From Acinetobacter seifertii (lineage in GTDB: Bacteria; Pseudomonadota; Gammaproteobacteria; Pseudomonadales; Moraxellaceae): 64,000 bases of DNA. This document shows, piece by piece, positions 44,050 to 45,695 of the stretch. Both the position numbers and the translations under genes were made by a program. Where the stretch lies: positions 159,083 to 223,082 of the forward strand of contig NZ_KB851199.1 in the NCBI RefSeq assembly GCF_000368065.1, in the 5' to 3' direction. Under the pieces are notes generated by a model. That model made no database searches, was not told the DNA's origin, and saw nothing but the letters and a program-made list of their open reading frames with translations. Within the stretch, counting starts at the first letter, position 1. Every line of letters starts with the position of its first letter.

Positions 44050-44093
44050 TGTCTTAAAAATGAAATATAAGTGTCACATTCTTGTCATAGCAA
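44050..44093 (+). promoter_or_regulatory. PhoB-box array (four 11-bp units) upstream of tatA
   Basis: Four units start with TG at exact 11-base steps: TGTCTTAAAAA, TGAAATATAAG, TGTCACATTCT and TGTCATAGCAA. PhoB binds direct repeats of this type (TGTCA with an 11-bp period). The array ends 39 bp before the tatA ATG, where it could replace the -35 element. A closely similar array lies upstream of phoX. Confidence 0.75.
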
Positions 44094-44132
44094 CCTGTTG
44101 AGATAAAGCGAACTAAAAAGAGGTATAAAATT

Positions 44133-44351
44133 ATGGCCGGTTTATCTATTTGGCATGTGGTTATTTTCGCAATTGTCGTTATTTTATTGTTCGGTACATC
44201 TAAATTAAAAAATATCGGTAAAGATGTAGGCGGTGCAGTAAAAGACTTCAAAAAATCAGTTCGTGAAGAGGATGATGCTACATCTTTAAATACTCCTCGT
44301 ACGATCGATGCACAAGTTAAAACATCTGAAAGCACTTCAGTGAAAAGCTAA
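44133..44351 (+). CDS. tatA: Sec-independent translocase subunit TatA
   Basis: TatA forms the pore-like assemblies of the twin-arginine export system. The 72-residue protein has an N-terminal membrane helix (about 4-20, [19 protein letters not shown]) with the [20 protein letters not shown] hinge and amphipathic helix of the family, and then an acidic polar tail. It is followed after 11 bp by tatB. A PhoB-box array precedes it. Confidence 0.96.
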
Positions 44352-44362
44352 AGGTTTCCCCC

Positions 44363-44800
44363 ATGCTTGATGTAGGAATGACAGAGCTACTCTGTTTTGC
44401 AATTATCGCAATTTTAGTTTTAGGTCCAGATAAGCTTCCAGAGGCTGCACGTTTTGCTGGTCGCTGGTATGTTCGACTAAAACGATATATTACCAATTTG
44501 CAAAATGAGATTGATCAGGAGTTGCGTCTTTCTGAGTTCCGTAAAGAAATGCAAGAGGAACTTAATCGCATCGAAGCATTGGAACGGAAAGTACAACAAC
44601 AGCTTGAAGAAATACAAAAACAGCAGACTTCTGAGCATTTAGAAGTTACTGAAAAACCGAAAACAACACAAAAGCCTATTCGGAAATGTATTCCTATATC
44701 AGACCAATACAAGGTACCGTATGTTGCAAAAATTACGCCTTTCGTTCCTCAAACTGATATAGCCGAAACATCTCCTGTTGAATTGAAGATTGCCGTATGA
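44363..44800 (+). CDS. tatB: Sec-independent translocase subunit TatB
   Basis: TatB joins TatC in the receptor complex that recognises twin-arginine signals. The 145-residue product has a membrane helix followed by the typical LGPDKLPEAARFAGRWYVRL and a long charged helix (about 50-100). The C-terminus is variable and Pro/Lys-rich. Its stop overlaps the tatC start by 4 bases (ATGA). Confidence 0.94.
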   Translation: MLDVGMTELLCFAIIAILVLGPDKLPEAARFAGRWYVRLKRYITNLQNEIDQELRLSEFRKEMQEELNRIEALERKVQQQLEEIQKQQTSEHLEVTEKPKTTQKPIRKCIPISDQYKVPYVAKITPFVPQTDIAETSPVELKIAV

Positions 44801-45567
44801 ACCAACTGCCTTCAACCACTGTAAATAGTCAAGAAAACCTAGACCAAATGCCAATCATGAATCATTTGGTCGTTTTAAGACGCCATTTATTCAGGATTGT
44901 AGGGGTAACATTATTCTTATTTTTTTGTTTACTACCCTTTCGAAATAATACTTACCAATTACTATCTGAGCCTTTAAGGTTACAACTTCCTGCATCATCG
45001 TCAATGATTGCAACAGATGTGACAGCAACCTTTATGGCACCTTTTAAATTAAATTTATTTGTCGCACTTGTGTTAGCCATGCCATTTATTCTTTATGAAA
45101 TATGGTCTTTTGTTCGCCCAGCACTCTATCAAAAAGAACGCCATTTAGCACTTCCATTACTGGTTGGCAGTATTGTCCTATTTTATGCAGGGGTAGCTTT
45201 TGCTTATTACATTACCCTGCCTGCAATACTACATTTCTTTATTAGCGTTTCACCTGAAACAGTAGCACCAATGACCGACATTAATAGTTATTTAAGTTTC
45301 TGTTTAAAGCTATTTTTAGTGTTTGGTGTAACTTTTGAAATTCCTATCGCTACCTTATTACTGATTTTAATTGGCGTAGTAAATACTCAAAGTCTTGCTG
45401 AAAAGAGACGTTTTATTATTGTGGGATGCTTTTTTGTTGCCATGTTTATTACCCCACCAGATGCGATTTCAATGGTGATGTTAGCGATTCCGATGTGGTT
45501 ACTTTTCGAAATAGGCTTACTCTTTGGAAGAATTCTTGAAAAGAGAAAAAGCCAGACTGCTGAATGA
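44797..45567 (+). CDS. tatC: Sec-independent translocase subunit TatC
   Basis: TatC is the six-span membrane protein that binds the twin-arginine signal peptide. The 256-residue protein has the N-terminal MNHLVVLRRHLFRIV, the periplasmic FMAPFKLNLFVAL and PFILYEIWSFVRPALY stretches of the family, and the late ITPPDAISMVMLAIPMWLLF. It completes the tatABC operon, and phoX, a likely Tat substrate gene, follows after a terminator. Confidence 0.97.
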   Translation: MNQLPSTTVNSQENLDQMPIMNHLVVLRRHLFRIVGVTLFLFFCLLPFRNNTYQLLSEPLRLQLPASSSMIATDVTATFMAPFKLNLFVALVLAMPFILYEIWSFVRPALYQKERHLALPLLVGSIVLFYAGVAFAYYITLPAILHFFISVSPETVAPMTDINSYLSFCLKLFLVFGVTFEIPIATLLLILIGVVNTQSLAEKRRFIIVGCFFVAMFITPPDAISMVMLAIPMWLLFEIGLLFGRILEKRKSQTAE

Positions 45568-45583
45568 TTTACAACTTTTCTTT

Positions 45584-45619
45584 AAAAGCCCAGATATTAA
45601 AATTTGGGCTTTTTATTTT
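45584..45619 (+). terminator. Intrinsic terminator of tatABC
   Basis: AAAAGCCCA and TGGGCTTTTT pair around an AT-rich loop, followed by ATTTTTG. The phoX PhoB array starts 33 bp further on, so phoX is transcribed separately. Confidence 0.82.
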
Positions 45620-45651
45620 TGAACATTTGTTTAAATCATCAAACTGTAAAC

Positions 45652-45695
45652 TGTCTTCAAAGTGACTTAAAAATGTAAGAAAAGTGTCATTTCCA
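45652..45695 (+). promoter_or_regulatory. PhoB-box array (four 11-bp units) upstream of phoX
   Basis: Four units begin with TG at exact 11-base steps: TGTCTTCAAAG, TGACTTAAAAA, TGTAAGAAAAG and TGTCATTTCCA. A TAGAAT box at 45701-45706 follows at a suitable distance for a -10 element, and the phoX ATG is at 45746. The arrangement copies the one upstream of tatA. Confidence 0.8.

What the first reader, a model, noticed from the sequence alone, without database searches (positions are those of the whole stretch)
44050..45695. Matching four-unit PhoB-box arrays in front of tatABC and of phoX
Upstream of tatA (44050-44093) and of phoX (45652-45695) four units begin with TG at exactly 11-base steps, several as TGTC(A/T). 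The two arrays also share a run of about 29 bases with only some six differences. Eleven-base direct repeats are the known PhoB binding pattern. The layout suggests that phosphate starvation raises both the folded-protein exporter and its neighbour phosphatase, which carries a twin-arginine signal. Control of the general Tat system by phosphate would be unusual, since tatABC is mostly regarded as constitutive.
Basis: partly seen in the sequence, partly recalled or inferred. Interest (0 to 1): 0.72.

Follow-up and report, generated by a model that had tools for sequence, protein, structure and literature searches.

The report
Phosphate-starvation switch on Tat exporter
In Acinetobacter bacteria, the genes for the machine that exports folded proteins carry the same phosphate-starvation control site as the phosphatase gene next to them, which suggests that these bacteria treat this usually always-on machine as part of their kit for gathering phosphate.

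Summary
TG,TG,TG,TGTCA at 11-base steps occurs twice in the 64-kb window, before tatA (44050) and phoX (45652), and nowhere else on either strand; reversed controls gave 0. Each array ends 10 bases before a -10-like hexamer. In Acinetobacter the core is before 74 of 78 tatA genes, against 0 of 191 control regions. A matrix from other species' tatA arrays ranks phoX next in the window and, in the same genome, finds a porin and two RR-signal phospholipases C. In six genomes where phoX no longer directly follows tatC, both genes keep the array. Of 175 genomes, 158 have this TatC type and the same 158 have PhoX; the other 17 have neither. In 131 of the 158 no second TatC was found. So tatABC is most likely a PhoB-controlled unit. 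A paper already says that genes associated with Tat export rise in low phosphate in A. baumannii (PMC11828411), and Bacillus subtilis TatAdCd is a known parallel. I found no earlier report of the site at tat, its conservation or the PhoX coupling. PhoB dependence was not tested.

The parts
44050..44093 (+). Four-unit Pho-type array in front of tatA (TG at 44050, 44061, 44072, 44083)
   Evidence: read directly; one of only two in the window; core in 74 of 78 Acinetobacter tatA upstreams, 0 of 191 controls
44096..44104 (+). Inferred extended -10 of tatA (TG, one base, TGAGAT); the hexamer starts 10 bases after the last TGTCAT
   Evidence: TG in 43 of 43 non-redundant arrays; all 43 hexamers read T...AT
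44133..44351 (+). tatA
   Evidence: PF02416, TIGR01411 over cut-off
44363..44800 (+). tatB
   Evidence: TIGR01410 over cut-off
44797..45567 (+). tatC
   Evidence: PF00902, TIGR00945 over cut-off
45584..45613 (+). Terminator-like hairpin between tatC and phoX, probably separating two transcription units
   Evidence: 2 such sites in the region, shuffles give 2.7 on average; fold -15 kcal/mol, z -4.6
45652..45695 (+). Four-unit Pho-type array in front of phoX (TG at 45652, 45663, 45674, 45685)
   Evidence: second-best window site of a matrix built from tatA arrays of other species
45701..45706 (+). Inferred -10 of phoX (TAGAAT), 10 bases after the last TGTCAT
   Evidence: similar block visible in many of the 35 phoX upstreams printed
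45746..47731 (+). phoX (type A, 661 aa), start MTTASNHPTRRDILKWF...TLAGC: twin-arginine signal with lipobox by eye
   Evidence: PF05787, 71.7 bits, cut-off 24; signal alike in the 10 relatives printed

Best explanation
The two arrays are PhoB binding sites (Pho boxes of four 11-base units) that stand in for the -35 element of two separate promoters, one for tatABC and one for phoX. When phosphate is scarce, PhoR phosphorylates PhoB, PhoB binds both arrays and recruits RNA polymerase to the -10 elements 10 bases downstream, and the cell makes more TatABC together with the twin-arginine phosphatase PhoX (and, from unlinked sites, two twin-arginine phospholipases C), so export capacity rises with the load. 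Shown: arrays, spacing, conservation, sharing with phosphate genes, and co-occurrence with PhoX. Inferred: PhoB as the binder, activation, and the purpose.
For: Uniqueness in the window. Conservation in 43 non-redundant loci: units 1-2, which did not serve to pick the rows, 1.15 bits per base; -10 block 1.37; upstream flank 0.07-0.10. Matrix from those 43 (window, L030 and L031 left out): tatA 58.0, phoX 11.1 and 7.1; the next window sites are -9.8 (45701, - strand) and -11.2 (7613, - strand). Own genome: C5:464809 27.9, porin 16.7, plc2 12.9, plc1 9.9, pstS -1.4. 4 Mb of random sequence, one strand, gave 0 sites at 0 or above; 307 other gene-start upstreams of the same loci, many of them inside the tat operon, reached at most -22.5. 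PhoX type A upstreams at 0 or above: 31 of 35; the phoX of the six genomes where it does not directly follow tatC: 6 of 6. This TatC type with PhoX in 158 of 158, neither in 17 of 17. PhoB 335.4 bits, cut-off 296.2; PhoR over cut-off. Published low-phosphate statement (PMC11828411).
Against: phoB's own upstream scores low with the tatA matrix (-18.7 on its strand), pstS only -1.4, and PhoX type B upstreams reach 0 or above in only 13 of 35 (their starts were chosen by a rule). Three of 78 tatA upstreams lack a good array: L070, L098, L101; L070 is one of two tat loci kept from the same strain. One own-genome site at 1.1 (C6:321562) precedes only a transposase-like ORF and looks like chance. 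In LB, tatABC is 4.4-9.6-fold higher in exponential than in stationary phase (PMC12687288, passages), so phosphate is not its only control. None of 19 readable tatA upstreams from other genera of the family reached -15. The gene table of the RNA-seq paper could not be read, so it is not known that tatABC itself is on its list.
Confidence: 0.88

Rival explanations
1. Another OmpR-type response regulator with an 11-base repeat, not PhoB, binds these arrays.
For: The genome holds at least 8 further places that match the PhoB model over nearly its whole length, below its cut-off; the matrix scores phoB's own promoter low.
Against: The same matrix finds the porin, two phospholipases C, phoX and, weakly, pstS in this genome: mostly a phosphate set. 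The TGTCA core agrees with the E. coli Pho box consensus quoted in PMC11828411.
Confidence: 0.06
2. The tatA array serves the divergent gene 43004-43891, and tatABC itself is constitutive.
For: The two genes share the intergenic stretch 43892-44132. In L098 and L101, where that gene lies further off, only a degraded site is left before tatA.
Against: The repeats read towards tatA and end 10 bases before a conserved -10 on that side. In loci where tblastn found no relative of the divergent gene (for example L036, L040, L073, L084) the array is kept.
Confidence: 0.03
3. The conservation is only shared descent of a recent promoter without present function.
For: All loci compared are close relatives, and the 80 kept were those with the TatC nearest to the window's.
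Against: Flanking bases in the same loci have lost almost all similarity (0.07-0.10 bits against 1.15-1.37), and phoX keeps the array in 6 of 6 genomes where it no longer directly follows tatC.
Confidence: 0.03

Closest known systems
Bacillus subtilis phoD-tatAd-tatCd
   Same: A Tat translocase encoded beside its phosphodiesterase substrate, all three genes induced in phosphate starvation (PMC3068169, passages).
   Different: There it is a TatAC pair in addition to a constitutive TatAyCy; here a TatABC, with separate arrays for exporter and enzyme, and no second TatC found in 131 of the 158 Acinetobacter genomes that have it.
A. baumannii ATCC 17978 low-phosphate response
   Same: Same genus; the text says genes associated with Tat-dependent export and phospholipases go up in 50 uM phosphate, and describes a Pho box in front of olsB (PMC11828411, section 8 and passages).
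   Different: In its main text phoX has 0 hits and Tat one, and the Pho box passages shown concern olsB and olsA; its gene table was not readable here.
Pseudomonas aeruginosa Hxc type II system with LapA
   Same: A secretion system that accumulates in phosphate limitation together with its phosphatase (PMC9769906, passages).
   Different: Different machine (type II secretion).
TatCd clade of Bacilli
   Same: A legend on tatC gene neighbourhoods lists phoD and a DUF839 gene, and tatCd is said to be expressed only under phosphate limitation in B. subtilis (PMC3827258, passages; that DUF839 is the older name of the PhoX family is recalled).
   Different: Gram-positive; the same paper's table gives two TatC for A. 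calcoaceticus, A. oleivorans and Acinetobacter sp. ADP1, so Tat is not single in every Acinetobacter.

Membership tests
Pho box (PhoB site) | At least two 11-base direct repeats with TGTCA core | tested here: met
   tatA has TGTCA-N6-TGTCA plus two further TG units; phoX one TGTCA, one TGTCT and two partial units
Pho box (PhoB site) | Lies about 10 bases before the -10 in place of a -35 (feature recalled) | tested here: met
   10 bases in tatA and phoX; the sigma-70 scan lists no -35/-10 pair at either inferred -10; no start was mapped
Pho box (PhoB site) | Same site at known phosphate genes of the genome | tested here: met
   plc1, plc2 and a porin at 9.9 or more, pstS -1.4; phoB itself low, -18.7
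Pho box (PhoB site) | PhoB and PhoR present | tested here: met
Pho box (PhoB site) | Binding by PhoB and phoB-dependent induction at low phosphate | not testable with these tools
   only a general published statement on Tat-export genes
Phosphate-dedicated Tat of the TatAdCd type | Gene neighbour is a twin-arginine phosphatase | tested here: met
   PhoX type A in 35 and type B in 35 of 80 loci downstream of tatC
Phosphate-dedicated Tat of the TatAdCd type | Two-part TatAC without TatB | tested here: not met
   tatB present, TIGR01410 over cut-off
Phosphate-dedicated Tat of the TatAdCd type | A second, constitutive Tat in the same cell | tested here: not met
   131 of 158 genomes show one TatC match only; the window's own genome does have a second, in a sulfur-type cluster, whose expression is unknown
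PhoX | PF05787 domain | tested here: met
   71.7 bits, cut-off 24, covers profile 139-515 of 515 only
PhoX | Phosphatase activity, Tat-dependent export | not testable with these tools
   RR motif read by eye

The most novel reading that the evidence does not exclude
In Acinetobacter the Tat pathway has been turned from a housekeeping exporter into a nutrient-starvation device: the usual, often only TatABC is a PhoB unit kept only as long as the cell keeps a PhoX phosphatase, the place beside it is filled by either of two very different PhoX types, and in the window's own genome a second TatABC stands in a sulfur-scavenging type of cluster with twin-arginine binding proteins nearby.
Probability: 0.4. 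Interest if true: 0.68.

Novelty: new variant of a known kind. Interest (0 to 1): 0.52.

Why it matters
Tat is usually treated as constitutive in Gram-negative bacteria (recalled). A widespread Pho site on its often only tat operon, and presence of Tat in step with one phosphatase family, would make Acinetobacter a test case for how a general exporter becomes specialised. It also bears on infection studies: a tatABC deletion in A. baumannii ABC141 loses adhesion, with no substrate identified (PMC12687288, passages); phosphate level would be a hidden variable there, with PhoX and two phospholipases C as first candidate substrates.

Tried and rejected
Rejected: the bare TG periodicity as evidence (5 hits in the window), and the two-unit motif alone as a genome ranking (221 against 185 in the reversed control). 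The Tat signal profile TIGR01409 gave only 3 places at E up to 1 and none at PhoX, so no full list of Tat substrates was made. I first took the array at 7575-7612 to be that of olsB (note); the ORF there is a glycosyltransferase beside a transposase ORF, corrected. No tree was built, so the number of independent losses of tat and phoX is unknown; Fisher values ignore relatedness, and one deletion can remove neighbours together. The genome lists were counted and compared by eye from the printed rows.

Print searches. No title or abstract start in these listings showed a Pho box at Acinetobacter tat; passages of five papers were looked at for it or for parallels (PMC11828411, PMC3068169, PMC12845397, PMC3827258, PMC12687288), and of PMC9769906 for Hxc. 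The library holds only CC-licensed papers.

Full report
What was claimed. Four units beginning with TG at 11-base steps stand in front of tatA and of phoX, look like PhoB sites, and would put the general Tat exporter under phosphate control.

Is it there? Yes. The units begin at 44050, 44061, 44072, 44083 and at 45652, 45663, 45674, 45685. TG x3 followed by TGTCA at 11-base steps occurs exactly at these two places in the window, none on the - strand and none in reversed-sequence controls. The 29-base run shared by the arrays has 6 differences, but pairs tatA units 1-3 with phoX units 2-4.

The genes. TatA, TatB and TatC are recognised by Pfam and NCBIfam. The gene at 45746-47731 holds the PhoX domain PF05787 (no NCBIfam match), and its start reads as a twin-arginine signal with a lipobox (by eye). 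A terminator-like hairpin lies between tatC and phoX, so the two arrays probably serve two transcripts. In both, the last TGTCAT is followed by 10 bases and then a -10-like hexamer: TGAGAT with an upstream TG for tatA, TAGAAT for phoX.

Relatives. The TatC scan of named genomes confirmed 173 loci, of which the best 80 were kept, that is, those nearest to the window's TatC; nearly all are titled Acinetobacter, one a Moraxellaceae bin. In 78 of them tatA's start is readable. The core [CTA][GA]TCA-N6-TGTCA is in the last 140 bases before tatA in 74 of 78, against 0 of 191 control upstream regions of tatB, tatC and a downstream gene. The pattern was written after seeing the sequences, so this describes and is no blind test. 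In 43 non-redundant loci (window, L030, L031 left out) units 1-2 carry 1.15 bits per base and the -10 block 1.37, while the 58 bases upstream carry 0.07-0.10. Units 3-4 were used to pick and align the rows, so their conservation is partly built in. Three of 78 have no good array: L070, L098, L101; L081 has one with a changed third unit.

A matrix test. A matrix of those 43 tatA arrays, built without the window and without phosphatase upstreams, was run over the window: tatA 58.0, then phoX 11.1 and 7.1, then -9.8 on the other strand at phoX, and -11.2 at 7613. In stretches of the same genome it gives 27.9 before a 72-aa ORF of unknown family, 16.7 before a porin, 12.9 and 9.9 before two phospholipases C, 1.1 at a site that looks like chance, -1.4 before pstS, -18.7 before phoB on its strand and -36.6 before a second tat operon. 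Random sequence of 4 Mb, one strand, gives 0 sites at 0 or more, 5 at -5 or more and 20 at -10 or more; 307 control upstreams give none above -22.5. PhoX type A upstreams: 31 of 35 at 0 or more; PhoX type B: 13 of 35.

The place after tatC. Of the 80 loci, 35 hold PhoX type A there, 35 a different PhoX (type B, 720-780 aa, 20-30 percent identical to the window's PhoX in the parts that align), and 10 neither: three of these end too soon to tell (L076, L089, L094), L070 has other genes, and six have no phosphatase next to tatC (L046, L069, L079, L080, L083, L108). tatA arrays score 0 or more in 35 of 35 type A loci, 31 of 33 type B loci with a readable start, and 9 of 10 others, all six included. 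In the six genomes a phoX of 60-63 percent identity to the window's was found: in L046's genome about 5 kb further downstream on the same contig, behind inserted genes; in the other five on another contig, as far as the contig numbers can be matched. All six carry the array, 8.4 to 28.2. So the array belongs to each gene, not to the neighbourhood.

Co-occurrence. Of 175 Acinetobacter genomes, 161 have a TatC match. In 158 it is of the window's type (E at most 1.9e-106); the other three are divergent or chance-level: G117 at 52 percent, G047 at 47 and 43 percent, G091 a 70-residue scrap, and the tat genes of G117 and G047 have no array (best -29.5). PhoX is found in 158 genomes, and they are the same 158; the other 17 have neither (compared by eye). 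Two of the 17 are under 70 percent complete. PF04185, the domain of the phospholipases C, is over cut-off in 76 of 175, none of them among the 17. Of the 158, 131 have no second TatC match. This fits an exporter kept for phosphate enzymes, but relatedness was not corrected for, and neighbours can be lost together.

Outside the genus. Twenty loci of the same family were fetched, out of 105 genomes of other genera with a TatC match; 19 had a findable tatA and none reached -15 (best -15.9). By eye, the three loci of genus g10 and one of g12 (L200) have a shorter version, one or two units 10 bases before a -10-like hexamer, with a PhoX relative downstream, so the arrangement may have begun before Acinetobacter.

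What is in print. PMC11828411 (section 8 read, passages elsewhere) reports low-phosphate RNA-seq in A. [quoted passage not shown] the Pho box it describes is that of olsB. PMC12687288 (passages) reports that a tatABC deletion grows as well as wild type and loses adhesion, and that tatABC is 4.4-9.6-fold higher in exponential than in stationary LB culture; it says SignalP gave no significant Tat candidates, which is at odds with the RR starts of PhoX and both phospholipases seen here (by eye), though in another strain. PMC3068169 and PMC3827258 (passages) give the Bacillus parallel.

Verdict. A real, conserved Pho-type control site on tatABC, most likely read by PhoB; the kind is known from Bacillus, the form here (a TatABC, often the only one found, with its own array and tied to PhoX across the genus) is a new variant.

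Noticed in passing
L177 (G000:C6:1164000-1176000), 4910-6298: A second tatABC (TatC 53 percent identical) lies among ABC-transporter, FMN monooxygenase (alkanesulfonate type, below cut-off) and sigma-54 regulator genes; two family-5 binding proteins with RR starts lie within about 20 kb (L220:6717-8300, L221:11421-12995). It has no Pho array (-36.6). It looks like a Tat for sulfur scavenging.
   Followed up: partly
window 7575-7612 (-): Four units at 11-base steps (matrix -11.2) in front of a glycosyltransferase ORF (6646-7551, -) that ends beside a Mutator-family transposase ORF (5413-6621); the identical transposase ORF stands in L177:1151-2359. Possibly a phosphate-free lipid gene cut by an insertion.
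   Followed up: partly
L234:810-1140 (G000:C5:464809 region): The best non-tat array found in the genome stretches (27.9) precedes a 72-aa ORF without Pfam or NCBIfam match.
   Followed up: partly
window 45746-45860 and ten printed relatives: PhoX type A carries a lipobox (L[AST]GC) after the twin-arginine signal, so it may be a Tat-exported lipoprotein (by eye).
   Followed up: no
L098, L101: These two tatA promoters lost most units but have TATAGT at the -10 place, as if a PhoB-dependent promoter had become a stronger basal one.
   Followed up: no
window 44083-45660: By its primer list, the published A. baumannii tatABC deletion (PMC12687288) appears to start at the tatA promoter and end at the phoX array, so both arrays may remain side by side in that mutant (inference from passages).
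   Followed up: no
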